Positions 37,357-45,322 of a stretch of DNA of 64,000 bases are shown here, piece after piece. The position numbers and the translations under genes are program-made. Every line of letters begins with the position of its first letter. Position 1 is the stretch's first letter. Below the pieces are notes generated by a model, which made no database searches, was not told the DNA's origin, and was given only the letters and a program-made list of their open reading frames with translations. Source of the stretch: Odoribacter sp. (GTDB taxonomy: Bacteria > Bacteroidota > Bacteroidia > Bacteroidales > Prolixibacteraceae). The stretch lies in the NCBI GenBank assembly GCA_013824715.1, contig PNOH01000002.1, positions 1 to 64,000 on the forward strand, written 5' to 3'.

Positions 37357-38139
37357 TTAAATATCTGCTGCGATCGAACGGATAAATCCTGAAACTTTTT
37401 GCTCAAGAGGTTCGTTGCCCTCCATTGCTTTTACAAAAGCGCTTCCAATGATGGCTCCGTTGGCAAACTGGCAGGCGTTGGCAAAAGTTTCCGCATTCGA
37501 AATCCCAAAACCGATCAGTCGCGGATTTTTTAGCGAAGACAATTTTATACGTTCAAAATATTCCCTTTGAAAATCGGTAACACTCGATTTCGCGCCTGTT
37601 GTGGCATTACTCGAAACCATATAAATAAATCCTGATGAAAAATCGTCAATCACCTTCATGCGTTCTGCCGAAGTTTGGGGCGTGATCAGGAAAATATTGT
37701 GCAGATTATTGGCTTCAAAAATTGTTTTGAACTCTTCAAGGTACACGTCCAAAGGAAGGTCGGGAATAATCAGCCCATCAATGCCAATTTTATTGCATTT
37801 TTCACAGAAAGCTTCCACGCCATACTGAAGCACCGGATTGATGTAGCCCATCAGGATGAGTGGAATATCAACCGATTGGCGGATATCTGATAGCTGGTCA
37901 AACAGTTTGCGGACGCTCATCCCATTTCGCAGCGAAATAAGGCTGCTGTGTTGAATGACGGGACCGTCGGCCACCGGATCGGAAAAAGGCATACCAATTT
38001 CGATCAGGTCAACGCCGTTTTTTACCAGTTCCTGAATAATTGGGACTGTATCTTCCAGATTCGGGTATCCGGCTGTAAAATAAACGGATAAAATTCGTTC
38101 TTTTTTCGATTGAAAGAGTTGATTTATTCTGTTGTTCAT
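37357..38139 (-). CDS. trpA: Tryptophan synthase alpha subunit TrpA
   Basis: 260 aa. It cleaves indole-3-glycerol phosphate to indole and glyceraldehyde 3-phosphate, passing indole to TrpB. The catalytic Glu and Asp lie in LIEIGMPFSDPVADGP. Further matches are IDGLIIPDLPLD and IGFGISNAETFA. It is the last gene of the operon trpEGDCFBA. Confidence 0.97.
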   Translation of the reverse strand: MNNRINQLFQSKKERILSVYFTAGYPNLEDTVPIIQELVKNGVDLIEIGMPFSDPVADGPVIQHSSLISLRNGMSVRKLFDQLSDIRQSVDIPLILMGYINPVLQYGVEAFCEKCNKIGIDGLIIPDLPLDVYLEEFKTIFEANNLHNIFLITPQTSAERMKVIDDFSSGFIYMVSSNATTGAKSSVTDFQREYFERIKLSSLKNPRLIGFGISNAETFANACQFANGAIIGSAFVKAMEGNEPLEQKVSGFIRSIAADI

Positions 38140-38200
38140 CGTTTTTTGTTTTTTTTATTCCTTTTGATTCTTTGTCCTCTGACCAAATGGTTTAAATGAA

Positions 38201-38267
38201 ATCCCGAAGGGATGATAAGATTATAGTAATTGTATAAAAACAAGAGAAAGTAAATCCCGAAGGGATG
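38201..38267. repeat. Paired ATCCCGAAGGGAT repeats
   Basis: The palindrome ATCCCGAAGGGATG occurs at 38201-38214 and 38254-38267, with an inverted relative (CACCCCTTCAGGG) at 38281. It fills the trpB/trpA spacer. Confidence 0.75.
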
Positions 38268-38351
38268 AAATAAATTCTATCACCCCTTCAGGGTTCCGTT
38301 ATCCATAAATCAATTGTTATCTATAATCATTTCACACCTTCGGCGTTATTT

Positions 38352-39533
38352 TTAATATCCAAAATGTTTCAAATAGGCTTCCATGTCTTTATCTCCCCGT
38401 CCGGAGAGATTAATCACAGTCACTTCTTCAGGTTTTAGCTTTATTTTCTTCAATACTGCCAGCGCATGCGCCGATTCCAGAGCCGGAATAATTCCTTCGA
38501 GCTGGGTCAGTTCCAGGGCAGCGTCTAGTACTTCCGCGTCGGTTGCCCACAGATATTTTGCCCGTTTGGCAGCAAATAAATTGGCGTGCATCGGTCCAAT
38601 TCCGGGATAATCCAGTCCAGCCGAAATCGAATAGGGTTCTGTAATTTGTCCGTCTTCAGTTTGCATCAGAATGGAACGCGAGCTGTGCAAAACTCCCGGC
38701 GAGCCAAGTGTCAGCGTTGCTGCAGTTTCAGAAGTGTCAATACCTTTTCCGGCGGCTTCAACGCCAATTAATTCCACTTCTTCCTGATTGAGAAAATGAT
38801 AAAAAGCCCCGGCAGCATTGCTCCCGCCACCCACACAGGCAATCACCCGGGTCGGGTTTTCCTTGCCGGTTTGCTCATCCAACTGCCAGCGGATTTCTTC
38901 GGAAATTACCGATTGAAACCGGGCAACCATATCGGGATAAGGATGCGGGCCAACCACTGAACCAATGATGTAATGCGTGTCAACCGGATTGTTGATCCAG
39001 TCGCGCATGGCCTCGTTGGTGGCATCCTTCAGTGTCTGGTTACCACTGATTGCCGGAATCACCTCGGCACCGAGCATCTTCATTTTTTTTACATTCGGCG
39101 CCTGACGCTCCACATCAACAGCCCCCATATACACAATGCATTTCAGTCCCATCAGCGCGCAAACTGTAGCGGTAGCCAGTCCGTGCTGTCCGGCGCCTGT
39201 CTCGGCAATGATGCGATGTTTGCCCAATTTTTTCGCCACCAGGATTTGCCCAATCGTATTGTTTATTTTATGTGAGCCGGTATGGTTCAAGTCTTCGCGT
39301 TTCAGATAAATATTGCTCTGGTACTTTTCTGAAAGCCTTTTAGCGAAATACAACGGAGATGGCCGTCCTACGTAATGCTTGAGCAAACCAATAAACTCCT
39401 GCCTGAAATCGTATGAGTTGATAATTTCAAGGTATTTCAGACGGAGTTCTTCGATATTCGGCACCATCATTTCGGGGATATATGCCCCGCCGAACTCGCC
39501 ATAGTAACCTTTTTCGTTTACCTGATAATTCAT
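38352..39533 (-). CDS. trpB: Tryptophan synthase beta subunit TrpB
   Basis: 393 aa, PLP enzyme joining indole and L-serine. The PLP lysine is in HTGSHKINN, and the phosphate loop is GGGSNAAGAF. ETGAGQHGLATATVCALMG is the TrpB1-type signature, so it partners TrpA. It is separated from trpF by 171 bases of palindromic repeats. Confidence 0.97.
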   Translation of the reverse strand: MNYQVNEKGYYGEFGGAYIPEMMVPNIEELRLKYLEIINSYDFRQEFIGLLKHYVGRPSPLYFAKRLSEKYQSNIYLKREDLNHTGSHKINNTIGQILVAKKLGKHRIIAETGAGQHGLATATVCALMGLKCIVYMGAVDVERQAPNVKKMKMLGAEVIPAISGNQTLKDATNEAMRDWINNPVDTHYIIGSVVGPHPYPDMVARFQSVISEEIRWQLDEQTGKENPTRVIACVGGGSNAAGAFYHFLNQEEVELIGVEAAGKGIDTSETAATLTLGSPGVLHSSRSILMQTEDGQITEPYSISAGLDYPGIGPMHANLFAAKRAKYLWATDAEVLDAALELTQLEGIIPALESAHALAVLKKIKLKPEEVTVINLSGRGDKDMEAYLKHFGY

Positions 39534-39548
39534 ATCTAAAATTTAAAA

Positions 39549-39586
39549 GCCCCCTTCCCGTTCCCCCGTAGGGGGAAGGCTTTGGA
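39549..39586. repeat. CCCCCTTCCC-type hairpin repeat
   Basis: GCCCCCTTCCCGTTCCCCC faces GTAGGGGGAAGGC. Located immediately upstream of trpB. Confidence 0.55.
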
Positions 39587-39644
39587 CTTGCGTTATACTT
39601 ATTCAAACATTTTTTAGAGGCTGTTTAAATTTAGTTTTCTTGTT

Positions 39645-39680
39645 CAGTAGGGAATCCGCCAGTTGGCGGATTCCCTACTG
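39645..39680. repeat. Perfect 17-bp-arm hairpin
   Basis: CAGTAGGGAATCCGCCA, a two-base loop, and its exact reverse complement. It is flanked by an outer inverted pair, CTGTTTAA and TTAAACAG. It lies in the trpF/trpB spacer. Confidence 0.85.
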
Positions 39681-39704
39681 GAAATTATTAAACAGTTTCT
39701 TAAT

Positions 39705-40358
39705 TCAGCATTGAAATTCTCGTTCCATTTTCCTGATTTCAGAAATAAATTTCCTGACTTTTTTAACGTCCTTCAGCGCCGGACTAACTTCGAAACCGCT
39801 ATTGATGTCGATTCCAAATATTTTCGGATGACTGAAATTCCTGATTGATTCCACATCGCCGGGACCAATGCCACCACTTAGGAAAAAAGGAACTTCGTCT
39901 TTATAATTCTCAAGCAATTGCCAGTTGAATTTTTGTCCGGTTCCTCCAGGAAGCTGACCTTTGGTGTCGAACAAAAAATAATCGCAAACTCCGGAATACG
40001 ATTTTAAGCCTGAGAAATCGAAAGATTCATCCAATGAAAATGCTTTAAAAACCGTAATCCCGAAATTCTGAATTTGTTGGCAATATTCCGGAGATTCCTT
40101 TCCATGCAACTGCACAACCTCAAGCTTCCAGCTTTGGCAAATTTCAATTACTTTCTCCGGTATTTCATCAACAAAAACGCCAACCTTTTTTACTGAATCC
40201 GGGATATCAGCCAACAATTCCAGAGAAGGTTCAAACCCAACAAACCGTTTGCTTTTCGGGTAAAAGATGAATCCAAGATAATCGGGCAATACGGCGACTA
40301 CTCCTGAAATATTCTCAGGATCGCGCATTCCGCAGACTTTGATTTTTAGTTCGCTCAT
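39705..40358 (-). CDS. trpF: Phosphoribosylanthranilate isomerase TrpF
   Basis: 217 aa from the ATG at 40358. A longer frame to 40388 would translate the repeat upstream. The catalytic Cys is in KVCGMRDPENIS and the general acid Asp in FLSGGIGPGDVESI / IFGIDINSGFE. It isomerises N-phosphoribosyl anthranilate, with TrpC acting next. Confidence 0.95.
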   Translation of the reverse strand: MSELKIKVCGMRDPENISGVVAVLPDYLGFIFYPKSKRFVGFEPSLELLADIPDSVKKVGVFVDEIPEKVIEICQSWKLEVVQLHGKESPEYCQQIQNFGITVFKAFSLDESFDFSGLKSYSGVCDYFLFDTKGQLPGGTGQKFNWQLLENYKDEVPFFLSGGIGPGDVESIRNFSHPKIFGIDINSGFEVSPALKDVKKVRKFISEIRKMEREFQC

Positions 40359-40369
40359 CGTCTTTTTTA

Positions 40370-40402
40370 ATTCCGGGCGCGACTCCAAGTCGCACCCGGA
40401 AT
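40370..40402. repeat. Hairpin in the trpC/trpF spacer
   Basis: ATTCCGGGCGCGACT and AGTCGCACCCGGAAT, 14 of 15 complementary, with a three-base loop. It lies directly upstream of the trpF start. Confidence 0.8.
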
Positions 40403-40412
40403 ACGAGTATTT

Positions 40413-41198
40413 CTATTTCAATTTCTCAATAAATTCTTTACATGCTTTGCCCGGATTGTCGGTTTTCATGAAGGTTTCGCCAATCAGGAAACCTTTAAAA
40501 CCCACAGCCCGAAGCTGGGCGATACTTTCAGGATTCGAAATCCCACTCTCCGATATTTTCACAAATTGCTCAGGAATAAGTTTGCTCAGGCGAACCGAAG
40601 TCTGAACATCCACCTTAAAAGTTCTTAGGTTACGGTTGTTTACGCCAACCAAGTCAACCATTGGATTCAGTTTTTCCAGTTCTTCAGTGCTGTGGACTTC
40701 AACCAGCACTTCCAACCCGATTTCTTTGGCCGTTTCAGTCAGTTCGAGCAACAACGATTTACTCAGACTTTCGGCAATCAGCAGAATCACATCGGCGCCG
40801 TGGGCGCGTGCTTCGTAAACCTGATACGGATCGAGCAGAAAATCTTTACGCAATATCGGAGTTTTTGGATTTGCCCAGCGTGCTTTTGCCAAATCTTCAA
40901 AAGAACCTCCGAAGAACCTGTCATCGGTTAAAACCGATAAACCGCTTGCTCCGGCAGCAACATATCCGGCGGTAACTTGCGAAGCTTCTGCTTCAGCATT
41001 AATCACGCCTTTCGAAGGTGATTTGGTTTTAAATTCTGCAATTACACCACTGGCACCTTCAGCCAATAAAGCGGCTTTCAGCGAGTTTGTTGTCCGAAGA
41101 AAGTACGGCGATGCTTTCAATTCTTCAATCGAAACGCGGCTTTTTGCCTCAGCAATTTCTGTCCGTTTATGGTTGTTTATTTCGTCAAGTATATTCAT
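40413..41198 (-). CDS. trpC: Indole-3-glycerol phosphate synthase TrpC
   Basis: 261 aa from the ATG at 41198. The frame is open to 41261, but those 21 residues are translated repeat. MNILDEINNHKRTEIAEAKS opens the family. The catalytic Lys/Glu set lies in VIAEFKTKSPSKG, ILRKDFLLDPYQV and VLVEVHSTEEL. It closes the indole ring in the penultimate step. Confidence 0.96.
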   Translation of the reverse strand: MNILDEINNHKRTEIAEAKSRVSIEELKASPYFLRTTNSLKAALLAEGASGVIAEFKTKSPSKGVINAEAEASQVTAGYVAAGASGLSVLTDDRFFGGSFEDLAKARWANPKTPILRKDFLLDPYQVYEARAHGADVILLIAESLSKSLLLELTETAKEIGLEVLVEVHSTEELEKLNPMVDLVGVNNRNLRTFKVDVQTSVRLSKLIPEQFVKISESGISNPESIAQLRAVGFKGFLIGETFMKTDNPGKACKEFIEKLK

Positions 41199-41200
41199 AT

Positions 41201-41257
41201 TCGGGTTGCGAGATTCGGGTTGCGAGTTAACCCGTAACTCGTAACCCGAACCCCGTA
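41201..41257. repeat. CGGGTTGCGAGTT-family repeat
   Basis: GATTCGGGTTGCGAGTTAAC faces CCGTAACTCGTAACCCGAA. Same family as 14878-14943. It lies in the trpD/trpC spacer. Confidence 0.65.
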
Positions 41258-41263
41258 TCAATT

Positions 41264-42259
41264 TTATAAATTTAATTCCATCAGTTTCTTAAACGCACCC
41301 AATGCTTTTTTGCTTTTCAGTGATTCGTCAGCTTCATCAACACAATCGGCCAGCGATTTCTCCGGAAACATACACTTAATACCCAGGGCAGCATTGGCAA
41401 TTACAACATTCTGCTGAGATTCGGTTCCGGTTCCTTCCAATACGTTCCTGAAAATTTCAGCAGCAATCTCAATCGTTGCACCTCCATAAAGTGCATCCGG
41501 CAAAACAGGTGAGAATCCAAAATCGGCGGGCGAAAGGTTATCTTCAGTCAGGTTCGAAACAAAACGTGCATCGCCGGTGAGCGAAATCTCATCGTATCCA
41601 TCCAGGCTGTTTACAATGATGTAATTCTGACCGCTCTCACTGAAAACCTGATGATAAAGGTCCATCACATCCAGATCGTAAACGCCTACCAGTTGGTTTT
41701 TTGGAAAGGAAGGGTTGATAATCGGCCCCATGATATTGAAAAGAGTTTTTACTTTCAGCGCTTTGCGCACCGGACCGACACTTTTCATAGCCGGATGAAA
41801 CAGGGGAGCATGAAGGAAACAAATTCCGGCCTCTTCCACTTCGCGGCGCAATTTATTCTGATCGTTGCTGAACTGGTATCCAAAATACCCGAACATGTTC
41901 GACGATCCGCTCACCGAGGATAGTCCGTAATTGCCATGTTTGGTCACCTTGTAACCTGCTCCGGCCAACACAAAGGCACTAAGCGTGGAGATATTAAATG
42001 TATCTTTTCCATCGCCTCCTGTGCCGACTATATCAATTGTATTATATTCCGAAAAGTCGATGGTGACACATAATTCGAGCAGAGCCTGTCGGAATCCGGC
42101 CAATTCACCGGCCTTAATCCTGCGCATCCTGAAAACAGTTAAAAAAGAAGCAATTTCAGCGTCCGAATATTGACCTTCCGCAATGTTGACAAGTATGGTG
42201 CGAGCTTCCTCTTTGGAAAGCGTTTCACCGGAAAATAAGTAATTTAAAATATCCTTCAT
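41264..42259 (-). CDS. trpD: Anthranilate phosphoribosyltransferase TrpD
   Basis: 331 aa. The PRPP-binding loop is VGTGGDGKDTFNIST, and KHGNYGLSSVSGSSNMFGYF and FLHAPLFHPAMKSVGPVRK are the anthranilate-site motifs. It is a stand-alone enzyme, not fused to TrpG. Confidence 0.97.
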   Translation of the reverse strand: MKDILNYLFSGETLSKEEARTILVNIAEGQYSDAEIASFLTVFRMRRIKAGELAGFRQALLELCVTIDFSEYNTIDIVGTGGDGKDTFNISTLSAFVLAGAGYKVTKHGNYGLSSVSGSSNMFGYFGYQFSNDQNKLRREVEEAGICFLHAPLFHPAMKSVGPVRKALKVKTLFNIMGPIINPSFPKNQLVGVYDLDVMDLYHQVFSESGQNYIIVNSLDGYDEISLTGDARFVSNLTEDNLSPADFGFSPVLPDALYGGATIEIAAEIFRNVLEGTGTESQQNVVIANAALGIKCMFPEKSLADCVDEADESLKSKKALGAFKKLMELNL

Positions 42260-42303
42260 AAAAACTTATTAATGGTTAGAAGTCCGAAGTCCAGATTGGT
42301 GAT

Positions 42304-42378
42304 TGGTTATTCATTATTCAATATTGGATATTTGAGTTTTAATTTCCAATATCCAATATCCAACAACCAATATCCAAA
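42304..42378. repeat. ATTGGATATT inverted repeat
   Basis: TTATTCAATATTGGATATT faces several CCAATATCC units. It lies between trpG and trpD, ending just before the trpG stop codon. Confidence 0.65.
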
Positions 42379-42963
42379 TTACGCCCCTACTTTGGGGAGG
42401 CCAAGCCAATTCGCAATTATCTGTTCCCCCAGTGGTGTCAGCACCGACTCAGGATGGAACTGTACACCTTCCACATCAAAAGTAGTATGTTTCAGCGACA
42501 TGATCATGCCTTTATCATCGTAACTGGTTATCTGCAAACATTTCGGAAGATCAGTTTCGTTAACAATCCACGAATGGTAACGGCCAGCCTGAAAAGTATC
42601 CGGAAGCCCATCGAATAAAGTTGTTGGGATTTGGGTTCTGATTACTTTAGTTGCAATTCCGTGCAAAACCCGGTTCATGTTGGTGAGTGTTCCGCCAAAA
42701 GCTTCGCCAATGGCCTGATGTCCGAGACATACACCCAAAATGCTTTTGGTTGGAGCATACCTCCGGATAATGTCGAGCAACAAACCTGCTTCTTCTGGAA
42801 TTCCCGGTCCGGGCGACAATACAATTTTATCGTAATGTTCCAAATCTTCCAGCTCAATTTCATCGTTTCGGAACACATCAACCGGCAAGCCAGATATTTT
42901 TTTGATGGCATGCACCAGATTGTATGTGAACGAATCGTAATTGTCTATGACTACTATTTTCAT
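42379..42963 (-). CDS. trpG: Anthranilate synthase glutaminase TrpG
   Basis: 194 aa from the ATG at 42963 (MKIVVIDNYDSFTYNLV). The catalytic Cys is in GVCLGHQAIGEAFGG, and the His/Glu pair in VQFHPESVLTPLG. It supplies ammonia to TrpE. Confidence 0.96.
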   Translation of the reverse strand: MKIVVIDNYDSFTYNLVHAIKKISGLPVDVFRNDEIELEDLEHYDKIVLSPGPGIPEEAGLLLDIIRRYAPTKSILGVCLGHQAIGEAFGGTLTNMNRVLHGIATKVIRTQIPTTLFDGLPDTFQAGRYHSWIVNETDLPKCLQITSYDDKGMIMSLKHTTFDVEGVQFHPESVLTPLGEQIIANWLGLPKVGA

Positions 42964-43024
42964 GATGGTATAAATTTCAAGTTTCAGGTTCAAAAATTTC
43001 AAATTTGTCATTAATTGTCATTGA

Positions 43025-43131: not shown

Positions 43132-44541
43132 CTAATTAATCTCCTTCGCCATTTCCAGCGCTTTTTTCAGAGCAGCCAGTTTGTTGTTTACCTCCTGAAG
43201 TTCGCTTTCTTCCTGCGAATCGGCAACAATACCGGCTCCGGCCTGATAGAATAGGGTGTTTCCCTTACTCAGAAAAGATCGTATCATGATGGCATGATTC
43301 AGGGTTTGGTCGAACCCCAGATAACCAATACAACCGCCGTAATAACTTCGTCGCTGGTTTTCGTAAGTGTCAATCAATTGCATGGCACGGTGTTTCGGGG
43401 CTCCTGATAAAGTTCCGGCCGGGAACGAATCGCCCAAAACAGTGATCATGTTGGTATTTTCGGGCAATTTACCTGAAACTTCTGACACCAAATGAATGAC
43501 GTGCGAAAAATACTGAACCTGGCGGTAACTGTCAACACGTACATCGCTGGCATTACGGCTCAAATCGTTTCGGGCTAAATCGACTAACATGACATGTTCA
43601 GCATTTTCTTTCGGATCGGCGCACAATCGTTCGGCCGAAATTCGGTCTTCATCATCATTTCCTGATCGTTTGAATGTTCCGGCAATCGGGTTGATGATAG
43701 CCCGGTCTTTTTTAATTCTTAGCTCGGCTTCGGGACTTGAACCAAAAATCCGGTAGGTTCCATAGTCGAAATAGAATAAATAAGGAGAAGGGTTCACCGA
43801 GCGCAAAGCCCTGTAAACATTGAACTCGTCGCCTTTAAACGGCTGCGAAAACTGGCGTGAAAGCACAATCTGGAAAACATCGCCACGAAAACAATGTTCC
43901 TTGCCTTTGCTCACCATGTACTTGTATTGCTCGTTGGTAATGTTCGAAACTTCATCGCCAACCGTATCGAAATGAGTAGGAGAAAAGCTCAGGTTCCGGA
44001 GTAAGGACTCGATCTGACCAATTTCTTTGGTTTCGCCTTCCATCAGGTTTTCGATCAGGTAAATCATGTCTTTGTGATGGTCGATAGCCACGATATACTT
44101 ATAAAAACTATATTTCACTTCCGGAACCGAATAGGCTTCTTTGGCTTCGGCGGTAATATCAATTTTCTCGAAATACTTCACTGCGTCGTAACTGATGTAA
44201 CCAAATAATCCGTTGGCAGGCAGGCCATCTATTTCTCCTGAAAGGGTGAACGATTTAAAGAAATCATCCAACTGTTGATCGACCCGAACTTCCGAAGAAA
44301 TGGATTTCATTTCCTTTTCACGGCCATTATACTCGATGGTAATCTTTCCGCCATCAGCAGTGAAAGCTGCCATTGGCTTGATGCAGATGAATGAGTAAGC
44401 GTTTTCGTGGCCGTGATAGTCGGAACTTTCGAGCAAGATTGAATTCGGGAACAAGTCCCTGAATTTCAGGTAAACACTCACCGGGGTTAAAGTGTCGGCA
44501 AGGATTTTTTTTACGCTGACGAGTACGTTGATTGGGTTCAT
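43132..44541 (-). CDS. trpE: Anthranilate synthase component I TrpE
   Basis: 469 aa from the ATG at 44541 (MNPINVLVSVKKILADTLTP). The chorismate site is NPIAGTFKRSGNDDEDR, FPAGTLSGAPKHRAMQLID and RRSYYGGCIGYLG. LLESSDYHG near the N-terminus is the feedback-inhibition (Trp-binding) element. The frame stays open upstream through five 9-base repeats, each encoding Met-Thr-Thr, to 44601, so extended N-termini are possible. It is the first enzyme gene after the tandem attenuators. Confidence 0.96.
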   Translation of the reverse strand: MNPINVLVSVKKILADTLTPVSVYLKFRDLFPNSILLESSDYHGHENAYSFICIKPMAAFTADGGKITIEYNGREKEMKSISSEVRVDQQLDDFFKSFTLSGEIDGLPANGLFGYISYDAVKYFEKIDITAEAKEAYSVPEVKYSFYKYIVAIDHHKDMIYLIENLMEGETKEIGQIESLLRNLSFSPTHFDTVGDEVSNITNEQYKYMVSKGKEHCFRGDVFQIVLSRQFSQPFKGDEFNVYRALRSVNPSPYLFYFDYGTYRIFGSSPEAELRIKKDRAIINPIAGTFKRSGNDDEDRISAERLCADPKENAEHVMLVDLARNDLSRNASDVRVDSYRQVQYFSHVIHLVSEVSGKLPENTNMITVLGDSFPAGTLSGAPKHRAMQLIDTYENQRRSYYGGCIGYLGFDQTLNHAIMIRSFLSKGNTLFYQAGAGIVADSQEESELQEVNNKLAALKKALEMAKEIN

Positions 44542-44555
44542 GGGGTATGTTGTTT

Positions 44556-44608
44556 TTGTTGTCATTGTTGTCATTGTTGTCATTGTTGTCATTGTTGTCA
44601 TTGTTGAA
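44556..44608 (-). repeat. 9-bp tandem repeat before trpE
   Basis: Five perfect units and one partial unit of TGACAACAA on the minus strand. Each unit holds an in-frame ATG (Met-Thr-Thr). Changes in copy number would keep the trpE frame but change the number of start codons. Confidence 0.9.
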
Positions 44609-44621
44609 CACGATTATTGCA

Positions 44622-44765
44622 ATTCCGTCCGAAAGAAGGTTGTTGCTTTGAGAAACATTTTCCCGCGGACGGGTTCTTTTTCACCTTTTTTCCACAGGGC
44701 GTTGCCGTTCGACTGAGCTCACGCCGAAGCCCTGTGCTGATATATACCGCCCTTTCAGGACTAAT
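44622..44765. repeat. ATTCCGTCCGAAAGAAGGTT repeat, copy 1
   Basis: The first 20 bases (44622-44641) are identical to 55865-55884. In both copies a TTTTTTC segment, an inverted CAGGG/CCCTG pair and an ATATTTCGCCC or ATACCGCCC-like end follow. Not coding. Confidence 0.75.
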
Positions 44766-44797
44766 AAGTCGGTTCATTGCATCAGGCAGTCCTCAAG

Positions 44798-44829
44798 TCC
44801 CCTCCCTGTGGAGGGGATTTAGGGGAGGC
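44798..44829. repeat. CCCCTCCCTG-type hairpin repeat
   Basis: TCCCCTCC-CTGT-GGAGGGGA stem plus TTTAGGGGAGGC. It lies directly downstream of the second trp attenuator in transcription order. Confidence 0.6.
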
Positions 44830-44832
44830 TTC

Positions 44833-44867
44833 AAAAAAAAGCGGCTTACCGTGTTCCGATAAGCCGC
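44833..44867 (-). terminator. trp attenuator 2 terminator
   Basis: On the minus strand GCGGCTTA pairs with TAAGCCGC across an 11-base loop, followed by eight T. It lies 28 bases after the stop of the WWW leader peptide. Candidate antiterminator pairings are AAGTAGCT at the leader stop with AGCGGCTT (7 of 8, one G-U), or TACCGTG (44907-44913) with CACGGTA in the loop and 3' arm. Confidence 0.9.
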
Positions 44868-44895
44868 TTTTTTGTTCATTTTTTTACAATGATAG

Positions 44896-44964
44896 CTACT
44901 TCCTTCCACGGTATTGCGAAAAGTTTCTGTGCCACCACCAAATATTTGTAATTCTGTTCATCAT
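44896..44964 (-). CDS. Trp leader peptide 2 (three consecutive Trp)
   Basis: 22 codons, ATG at 44964-44962 to TAG at 44898-44896. It starts MMNRITNIWWWHRN and ends QYRGRK. Three adjacent TGG codons (44932-44940) in a 22-aa peptide directly before a strong terminator and the trp operon are the hallmark of ribosome-mediated attenuation. When charged Trp-tRNA is scarce, the ribosome should stall on WWW and favour the antiterminator. Confidence 0.85.
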   Translation of the reverse strand: MMNRITNIWWWHRNFSQYRGRK

Positions 44965-44969
44965 TCTTT

Positions 44970-45006
44970 TAAAAATTAAAAACCTGCTTTTCAGAAGAGA
45001 AGCAGG
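44970..45006 (-). terminator. trp attenuator 1 terminator
   Basis: Minus strand CCTGCTT pairs with AAGCAGG across a 10-base loop, followed by TTTTTAATTTTT. It separates leader peptide 1 from leader peptide 2. AACAGG near the end of leader 1 (45045-45050) can pair with the 5' arm, leaving one bulged C, as an antiterminator. Confidence 0.8.
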
Positions 45007-45038
45007 CGATATATGGATAAAAAATACCAATATGGCTC

Positions 45039-45104
45039 TTACTTCCTGTTATTTGCAGAAAGACCCCACCACGGAAGCCATATTGTATTTGTATTTTGGA
45101 TCAT
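45039..45104 (-). CDS. Trp leader peptide 1 (Trp-rich)
   Basis: 21 codons, ATG at 45104-45102 to TAA at 45041-45039. It starts MIQNTNTIWLPWWGLS and ends ANNRK. Three Trp codons at positions 9, 12 and 13. The shared pattern with peptide 2 (N-x-I-W near residue 9, clustered Trp, basic end) suggests duplication of a whole attenuator. No consensus promoter was found upstream (45105-45322). Confidence 0.8.
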   Translation of the reverse strand: MIQNTNTIWLPWWGLSANNRK

Positions 45105-45322
45105 GTTTTTAAAATCTGGTGTAAAAAAATGAAATTAATAACAGATTAACAAGTGTTCGGGATAGAAAGTTTAAAATTAGTGAAAGTCCATCTTCTTTTG
45201 TTAAAATTCAGGAGATATACAAAAGCATGGCAGAGGTTTCTGTTAAGGATGAATTTAAAACGGAATCAGGAGAATTGAAAGCAAAAAGTAAGTTCAAATT
45301 TAATAGGTATGGTGCAACACAA

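What the first reader, a model, noticed from the sequence alone, without database searches (positions are those of the whole stretch)
44833..45104. Two tandem Trp-leader attenuators in front of trpEGDCFBA
Seen: two short ORFs on the minus strand, 21 and 22 codons, each with three Trp codons (IWLPWWG; IWWWH), and each followed by a GC stem with a T tract (45006-44970; 44867-44833). The order is leader 1, terminator 1, leader 2, terminator 2, trpE. Candidate antiterminator segments overlap the end of each leader ORF. Known: in enterobacteria one such Trp leader regulates trp by ribosome stalling. Two in series, with related peptides, would give a two-stage or multiplicative response, and I am not aware of this as a described Bacteroidetes arrangement. 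Inference: a whole attenuator was duplicated.
Basis: partly seen in the sequence, partly recalled or inferred. Interest (0 to 1): 0.88.

Follow-up and report, generated by a model that had tools for sequence, protein, structure and literature searches.

The report
Two Trp attenuators in series
The tryptophan genes of this bacterium appear to be guarded by two tryptophan-sensing on/off RNA switches placed one after the other, an arrangement kept in many members of its family, and the RNA fold of the first switch is kept even in relatives that have lost its peptide and its stop signal, which is unexplained.

Summary
On the minus strand before trpEGDCFBA lie leader 1 (MIQNTNTIWLPWWGLSANNRK), terminator 1, leader 2 (MMNRITNIWWWHRNFSQYRGRK) and terminator 2. 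No shuffle of the region gave two such ORFs (0 of 20,000). Both attenuators have exclusive 1:2, 2:3 and 3:4 pairings; the 2:3 pairings covary in relatives, and in truncated-transcript folding they switch largely as stalling at Trp codons predicts. Leader 2 resembles the single WWW leader found widely in the phylum (Rfam Bacteroid-trp, but below its cut-off); leader 1 was seen only in this family, Prolixibacteraceae. No sequence similarity supports duplication in the window. Unexpected: of 99 family genomes scored, 82 have leader ORF 1 (terminator 1 found in 80 by script, seen by eye in the other two) and 17 have neither, yet the leader-1 RNA core stays almost invariant in 12 of these (identity 0.99/0.95 against about 0.53 in flanks). 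So element 1 probably has an RNA function beyond coding Trp stall codons. New variant of a known kind. The response to Trp is inferred, not measured.

The parts
45121..45152 (-). promoter-like stretch (TTG ... ATTTTTTTAC) directly upstream of leader 1; Bacteroidota-type, inferred
   Evidence: aligned in relatives; a loose pattern written after seeing it matches 74 of 99 relatives (57 of 82 with ORF 1, 17 of 17 without) against 177 of 1980 mononucleotide shuffles; not an exact TANNTTTG
45015..45095 (-). element 1: conserved RNA hairpin with P1 (AAAUAC-AAUAUGGCU/AGCCAUAUUG-GUAUUU), small hairpin UCC-GUGGUG-GGG and P2, predicted as a three-way junction; also regions 1 and 2 of attenuator 1
   Evidence: covariance model hits 102 of 140 family genomes; pair counts; fold z-score -3.10
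45039..45104 (-). leader ORF 1, MIQNTNTIWLPWWGLSANNRK, three Trp codons
   Evidence: in-frame ATG within 12 codons in 82 of 99 scored family genomes
45041..45046 (-). region 2 of attenuator 1 (GGAAGU), pairs within P2 or with the terminator-1 5' arm
   Evidence: swap test
44978..45007 (-). terminator 1 (regions 3:4) with T run
   Evidence: found in 80 of 82 ORF-bearing family genomes by script, in the other two by eye
44896..44964 (-). leader ORF 2, MMNRITNIWWWHRNFSQYRGRK, three consecutive Trp codons
   Evidence: sub-threshold Rfam Bacteroid-trp match 44984-44858, 32.1 bits, cut-off 49
44902..44923 (-). 1:2 hairpin of attenuator 2 (CUUUUCGC / GUGGAAGG)
   Evidence: pairing kept in relatives by eye on the alignment
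44895..44913 (-). region 2 of attenuator 2 (UACCGUG and AAGUAGC), pairing with 44853-44847 and 44867-44861
44833..44869 (-). terminator 2 (regions 3:4) with T run
43132..44541 (-). trpE (start ATG at 44541 chosen here), first gene of the operon
37357..43011 (-). [quoted passage not shown]

Best explanation
Two ribosome-mediated transcription attenuators in series, both reading charged tRNA-Trp, gate trpEGDCFBA. When Trp is plentiful the ribosome runs to the stop codon of leader 1, covers region 2, and terminator 1 forms. Without translation the P1/P2 hairpin holds region 2, and terminator 1 forms as well. When Trp is short the ribosome stalls on the Trp codons, P1 cannot form, region 2 pairs with the 5' arm of terminator 1, and polymerase goes on. 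It then makes leader 2, where the decision is taken again with WWW, the CUUUUCGC:GUGGAAGG hairpin, the UACCGUG:CACGGUA antiterminator and terminator 2. Read-through is then roughly the product of the two, giving tight shut-off and a steep response (inferred). Leader 2 is the older, widespread device and attenuator 1 was added in this family (inferred from ranges). The RNA core of element 1 has a further function that does not need its ORF or terminator (indicated by conservation; its nature is unknown, most likely a folding, pausing or recognition role at the 5' end of the trp transcript).
For: Anatomy and trp genes. Chance test 0 of 20,000. Two Trp leaders in 24 of 30 trpE loci of own genome, genus and family; of the other six, two have under 370 bases upstream and four show one leader (in one of these, L027, leader 1 lies further upstream). 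82 of 99 scored family genomes, in ten genera, have an in-frame ATG within 12 codons of the first Trp codon, 81 with three Trp codons and one with four; 80 of these 82 have terminator 1 by script, the other two by eye; 0 of the 17 ORF-less ones have one. Antiterminator pairing is stronger with the genome's own partner than with partners swapped within the genus: attenuator 1 -9.64 against -8.90 kcal/mol, 0 of 5000 permutations, n=66; attenuator 2 -16.53 against -16.15, p 0.0012, n=71. Truncated-transcript folds with a ribosome mask: attenuator 1 antiterminator probability 0.70-0.94 with a stall on any Trp codon until the 3' arm appears, 0.00 without a ribosome or at the stop codon; attenuator 2 outer pairing 0.96-0.98 at its best lengths with a stall on W3 or on W2 with the longer mask, 0 at the stop codon. 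Core conservation without the ORF.
Against: No expression data. Full-length equilibrium folding prefers both terminators whatever the mask, so antitermination must be kinetic. In attenuator 2 a stall on W1, or on W2 with the shorter mask, mostly leaves the 1:2 hairpin in place, and at one length (L129) the antiterminator appears even without a ribosome (0.59, against 0.85 with a W1 stall), so that stage discriminates less cleanly. Leader 2 plus terminator 2 was found by my script in only 73 of 99 family genomes (some records end early, some have other Trp spacing; not all misses were examined). The ORF-less genomes show that the leader-1 sequence is not kept for stalling alone. The swap test does not fully remove relatedness: the 82 genomes have only 15 distinct 33-base cores.
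Confidence: 0.85

Rival explanations
1. Element 1 is mainly a translation-independent RNA sensor (for example of tryptophan, tRNA-Trp or a protein), a junction whose P2 3' strand is shared with the antiterminator; leader ORF 1 is an overlay in most lineages.
For: The core is nearly invariant in 12 family genomes without ORF 1 and terminator 1 (0.993 and 0.945 against about 0.53 in flanks). In G033 and G064 only one in-frame Trp codon is left, but P1, P2 and GGUGGG remain. In ORF-bearing genomes Asn, Thr and Pro use one codon each (AAT 66 of 66, ACA 66 of 66, CCG 63 of 63). Seven of nine sequences folded give a three-way junction; pair counts exceed shuffles on most measures.
Against: ORF-bearing genomes keep an in-frame ATG, three or four Trp codons and a stop near region 2, as stalling requires. 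In the two g12 sequences folded (L210, L214) the small hairpin is not predicted. The count of pairs with changes on both sides is no better than shuffles (6 against 4.6, 68 of 500). No Rfam family matched at its threshold, and I found no natural tryptophan riboswitch in print (eight papers listed, one opened, PMC2245857, whose passage says none was predicted in Sinorhizobium meliloti or related alpha-proteobacteria). No obvious expression platform in the ORF-less genomes.
Confidence: 0.2
2. Only attenuator 2 works; leader 1 is a decaying or decoy upstream element.
For: A single Trp leader is what most other Bacteroidota trpE loci in the listing show, and 17 of 99 family genomes lack ORF 1 and terminator 1.
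Against: ORF 1, terminator 1 and their antiterminator pairing are kept and covary in 82 genomes of ten genera; G149 keeps attenuator 1 while its leader 2 looks degenerate.
Confidence: 0.06
3. The conserved 5' hairpin is, apart from its part in attenuator 1, only an mRNA stabiliser or a transcription-pause hairpin, and is kept for that in genomes without ORF 1.
For: It lies just downstream of the promoter-like box in both states; stable fold with a U-rich run after P1.
Against: A pure stabiliser need not keep the stretch UUCCGUGGUGGGG and the junction bases; P2 varies while these do not.
Confidence: 0.3
4. Recent duplication of one attenuator.
For: Both are Trp leaders followed by terminators. 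In one of nine genomes tested (one a genus), G164, the two align better than nearly all shuffles (3 of 500 as good); in two more, G082 and G178, 28 of 500.
Against: No similarity above shuffles in the window (321 of 2000 as good) or in the other six genomes (62 to 368 of 500). Different phylogenetic ranges.
Confidence: 0.05

Closest known systems
Enterobacterial trp attenuator (TrpL; recalled)
   Same: Trp-rich leader ORF, 1:2, 2:3 and 3:4 pairings, intrinsic terminator, trpE downstream
   Different: one attenuator there, two dissimilar ones in series here; the first has a conserved RNA core that outlives its ORF
Rfam RF01692 Bacteroid-trp (PMC2864571, table entry seen)
   Same: Bacteroidota trp leader with WWW; leader 2 looks like it
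   Different: leader 2 scores 32.1 bits against a cut-off of 49; no match listed over leader 1 even at E up to 10
Salmonella mgtCBR tandem attenuators (PMC3641672, abstract and outline seen)
   Same: two short ORFs with two attenuators in series in one leader
   Different: there the two sense different signals (ATP and proline) and add up; here both have Trp codons
Tandem T-boxes on Bacillota trp operons (PMC12452182, passages seen)
   Same: two Trp-responsive RNA elements in series on the trp operon
   Different: T-boxes bind tRNA directly (recalled); no Rfam family, T-box included, reached its threshold here
ermB with two leader peptides (PMC8274638, title and start of abstract in a listing)
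   Same: two leader peptides upstream of one gene
   Different: translational attenuation by an antibiotic, not amino-acid sensing

Membership tests
Ribosome-mediated Trp transcription attenuator (each of the two) | short leader ORF with clustered codons of the end-product amino acid | tested here: met
Ribosome-mediated Trp transcription attenuator (each of the two) | intrinsic terminator between leader and first gene | tested here: met
   by sequence, fold and conservation; the generic scan missed both
Ribosome-mediated Trp transcription attenuator (each of the two) | antiterminator exclusive with the terminator and released by stalling at the cognate codons | tested here: met
   by computation: (less cleanly for attenuator 2); equilibrium folding of the full length does not show it
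Ribosome-mediated Trp transcription attenuator (each of the two) | read-through rises when charged tRNA-Trp falls | not testable with these tools
   needs expression data
Rfam RF01692 Bacteroid-trp | covariance score at or above the curated gathering score | tested here: not met
   leader 2 32.1 bits against 49; leader 1 not matched
Rfam RF01692 Bacteroid-trp | upstream of trp genes with a Trp-rich leader | tested here: met
   of 13 Rfam hits in relatives 10 have trpB or trpE (named by eye) next downstream, 3 show no long ORF in the stretch held
Tandem attenuator leader | two complete attenuators in series before one operon, both functional | tested here: inconclusive
   both complete in sequence and conserved; function untested
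T-box | T-box covariance match | tested here: not met
   no Rfam match in the window at gathering score
Riboswitch (element 1) | conserved structured RNA independent of a leader ORF | tested here: met
   17 of 99 genomes without ORF
Riboswitch (element 1) | direct ligand binding | not testable with these tools
   needs in-line probing

The most novel reading that the evidence does not exclude
Element 1 is a translation-independent sensing RNA (a junction fold recognising tryptophan, tRNA-Trp or a dedicated protein) into which a Trp leader ORF has been written, so that one RNA stretch is at once coding stall signal, aptamer-like fold and antiterminator switch; in Sunxiuqinia, Gaoshiqia and relatives it acts without the ORF and without its own terminator.
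Probability: 0.18. Interest if true: 0.85.

Novelty: new variant of a known kind. Interest (0 to 1): 0.62.

Why it matters
It gives a natural, conserved case of two same-signal ribosome attenuators in series, so the question of what a second stage buys (tighter shut-off, steeper response, or a different threshold from W..WW against WWW) can be tested by removing one at a time. The 17 genomes that keep the first RNA fold but lack its ORF and terminator separate coding from RNA function inside one attenuator and point to a role of the 5' end of the trp transcript that I did not find described.

Tried and rejected
Duplication of one attenuator: not supported (exceptions told under the rivals). 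Translation of leader 1 from another start in the ORF-less genomes: considered unlikely; no in-frame ATG within 12 codons in 17 of 17, one ATG 30 codons away in G173, ATT, ATC, CTG or TTG in some, none of these in eight; two (G068, G005) have no stop until past leader 2. Overlapping frame starting at ATATGG: the ATG is forced by ATA TGG, and its peptide and stop are not conserved (by eye). Trans-acting RNA seed: an 11-base complement of the core loop occurs once in the own genome, in the leader itself (exact matches, own genome only). Element 1 elsewhere: no hit outside the family in the order sample (2 of 393 hit, both family members) or the phylum sample (1 of 395, the own genome). G067's weak family hit (E 0.0076) looks like a plain hairpin away from trpE. 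Of the 102 family hits 99 were scored: G067 was not in the list scored, G072 and G149 dropped out by regex; these two were read by eye and carry ORF 1 and terminator 1. Of the 99, 94 show trpE downstream on the same strand within the stretch held; of the five without, four stretches end within 130-432 bases (G126 also carries the inserted cassette) and G113 carries an inserted cassette before leader 2 and trpE. Equilibrium folding of the full leader was uninformative.

The junction fold has weak points: P1 hardly varies (2 of 9 pairs never, 6 on one side only, one with a change on both sides), the small hairpin varies chiefly in the IWLWWG-type genera, the alignment was fitted to the model, one of its 101 rows (L210, minus) is the antisense strand, and in the two g12 sequences folded the small hairpin is absent.

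Literature: ten searches; seen: PMC2864571 (two passages), PMC4833913, PMC2965389, PMC1183508, PMC9723704, PMC12452182 and PMC2245857 (passages), PMC3641672 (abstract and outline), others as listings only. Most subscription papers, for example surveys of attenuation cited in PMC4833913, are not held, so absence of a report is not proved. PMC9723704 notes clues of leader-peptide attenuation upstream of amino-acid operons in Flavobacterium psychrophilum (one passage).

Full report
What is there. On the minus strand upstream of trpEGDCFBA (genes by NCBIfam; trpE and trpF best hits but below curated cut-offs) the order is: promoter-like stretch, leader ORF 1 (45104-45039, MIQNTNTIWLPWWGLSANNRK), terminator 1, leader ORF 2 (44964-44896, MMNRITNIWWWHRNFSQYRGRK), terminator 2, a gap of about 290 bases, trpE. 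In 20,000 dinucleotide shuffles of the region none gave two ATG-started Trp-clustered short ORFs and 20 gave at least one. The generic terminator scan listed neither terminator, only one or two overlapping sites behind the upstream gene. No TANNTTTG lies on the minus strand between terminator 2 and trpE.

Whose it is. The closest named records with a similar TrpE are Prolixibacteraceae, among them Gaoshiqia, Sunxiuqinia, Maribellus, Draconibacterium and Mariniphaga (records very near the window's genome may be left out there). In the first 30 trpE loci (own genome, genus and family) 24 show both Trp leaders; two have under 370 bases upstream and four show one. Among the 80 named trpE loci, about 69 by my reading of the listing have a Trp-rich short ORF upstream of trpE, and 13 have the leader-1 type as an ATG-started ORF; all 13 are titled Prolixibacteraceae or one of its genera, except three uncultured Bacteroidia and one titled Chlorobiota whose contig has the same length as that of family genome G026. 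Rfam Bacteroid-trp is the known single leader of this phylum; of its 13 hits in relatives 10 have trpB or trpE next downstream, named by eye. Here leader 2 reaches 32.1 bits against a cut-off of 49.

How it works. For attenuator 1, region 2 (GGAAGU, at the leader's end) pairs either back within P2 or forward with the 5' arm of terminator 1. For attenuator 2, GUGGAAGG pairs back with CUUUUCGC, or UACCGUG and AAGUAGC pair forward with CACGGUA and GCGGCUU of terminator 2. Own partners pair better than partners swapped within the same genus: attenuator 1 -9.64 against -8.90 kcal/mol (0 of 5000 permutations, n=66), attenuator 2 -16.53 against -16.15 (p 0.0012, n=71 from 73 of 99 genomes in which the script found leader 2 and its terminator). 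With truncated transcripts and a ribosome mask, attenuator 1 goes to the antiterminator (0.70-0.94) with a stall on any Trp codon and to 0.00 without a ribosome or with one at the stop codon. Attenuator 2 does so at 0.96-0.98 at its best lengths with a stall on W3, or on W2 with the longer mask; with earlier stalls its 1:2 hairpin mostly stays, and at one length the antiterminator reaches 0.59 without a ribosome. At full length the terminators always win at equilibrium, so the choice must be kinetic. These are computations; the response to Trp is inferred.

Not a duplication, as far as sequence shows. The two attenuators do not align above shuffles in the window (321 of 2000 as good). Of nine genomes, one a genus, one was stronger than nearly all shuffles (G164, 3 of 500), two had 28 of 500 (G082, G178), and six had 62 to 368 of 500. 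Their ranges also differ: a covariance model of element 1 hits 102 of 140 family genomes, and elsewhere only family members in an order sample (2 of 393) and the own genome in a phylum sample (1 of 395), with stricter filters that lose weak matches.

The surprise. Of the 102 hits I scored 99. In 82, from ten genera, the Trp frame has an ATG within 12 codons, with three Trp codons in 81 and four in one, and terminator 1 is found in 80 by script, with the other two visible by eye. In 17 there is no such ATG and no terminator; in 16 of these 17 the script found leader 2, its ATG 28-34 bases after the start of the GCCATA box, and in the other (G033) a WW leader is seen. The 17 are g45 (Sunxiuqinia, six), g15 (four), g12 (four), Gaoshiqia, G005 and G064. 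In the TrpE tree nine of the fourteen such rows included form one clade (99/99) nested among ORF-bearing genomes, four (g12) form another, and one (G175, long branch) lies apart; the tree needs three changes. In the 12 genomes of g45, g15, Gaoshiqia and G005 the core is 0.993 (5' side) and 0.945 (3' side) identical, against 0.54 upstream of the promoter-like box, 0.53 between box and core, 0.64 in P2, 0.62 before leader 2 and 0.38 between terminator 2 and trpE; leader 2 from WWW is 0.89 and terminator 2 is 0.97. In G033 and G064 only one in-frame Trp codon is left while P1, P2 and GGUGGG remain. In the ORF-bearing genomes Asn, Thr and Pro of leader 1 use one codon each (AAT 66 of 66, ACA 66 of 66, CCG 63 of 63) and Leu mostly CTT (74 against 5 CTG), though only 15 distinct 33-base stretches are behind the 82.

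The common fold is P1 enclosing a small UCC-GUGGUG-GGG hairpin and P2; seven of nine sequences folded one by one show this three-way junction, the two from g12 show P1 and P2 only. On 83 distinct rows 96.0% of pair cells are paired and 42 cells are changed on both sides against 13.8 in shuffles, falling to 42-51% paired when slid; the number of pairs with changes on both sides (6 against 4.6) is not above shuffles (68 of 500 as high). P1 itself hardly varies, and the alignment was fitted to the model.

Reading. The tandem attenuator is the best-supported function in the window and in most family genomes with element 1. The ORF-less genomes indicate that the RNA of element 1 also does something that needs neither its ORF nor its terminator. 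A pause or stability hairpin would explain the stems but not the invariant loop; recognition of a ligand, tRNA or protein would explain both but has no direct evidence. I put the sensor reading at about 0.2.

Prior art. Single Bacteroidota trp leaders (PMC2864571, table), tandem attenuators with different signals (PMC3641672, abstract) and tandem trp T-boxes in Bacillota (PMC12452182, passages) are known. I found no report of tandem same-signal leader-peptide attenuators on trp in Bacteroidota in ten searches of an open-access library that lacks most subscription papers.

Noticed in passing
L239 (G031), L238 (G113), L180 (G126), minus strand: Between terminator 1 and leader 2 G031 carries a nucleotidyltransferase gene followed by a HepT-like gene, and G113 a nucleotidyltransferase gene (Pfam Polbeta/NTP_transf_2 and HepT-like); G126 has a similar sequence after terminator 1, its record ends before leader 2. 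The cassette would lie behind attenuator 1 alone.
   Followed up: partly
window 44548-44606: 9-base tandem repeat (6.6 copies) just upstream of the likely trpE start at 44541; the longer open frame reads MTT repeats there.
   Followed up: no
window 44560-44830: The gap between terminator 2 and trpE holds G/C-rich inverted repeat-like stretches that look like dispersed intergenic repeats (by eye, recalled resemblance); the distance from leader 2 to TrpE varies widely among relatives, from 82 to 339 bases in the same genus.
   Followed up: no
L233/L240 (G149): Attenuator 1 looks intact with a compensatory P1 change, while leader 2 and terminator 2 look degenerate (by eye).
   Followed up: partly
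L192-L200 and L202-L205 (genus g40), e.g. L195: Leader 2 has WSWRW-, WRW- or similar Trp spacing instead of WWW.
   Followed up: no
L220 (G064): The frame starting at ATATGG runs without a stop into leader 2, giving a possible fused leader with WW, W and WWW (read by eye).
   Followed up: no
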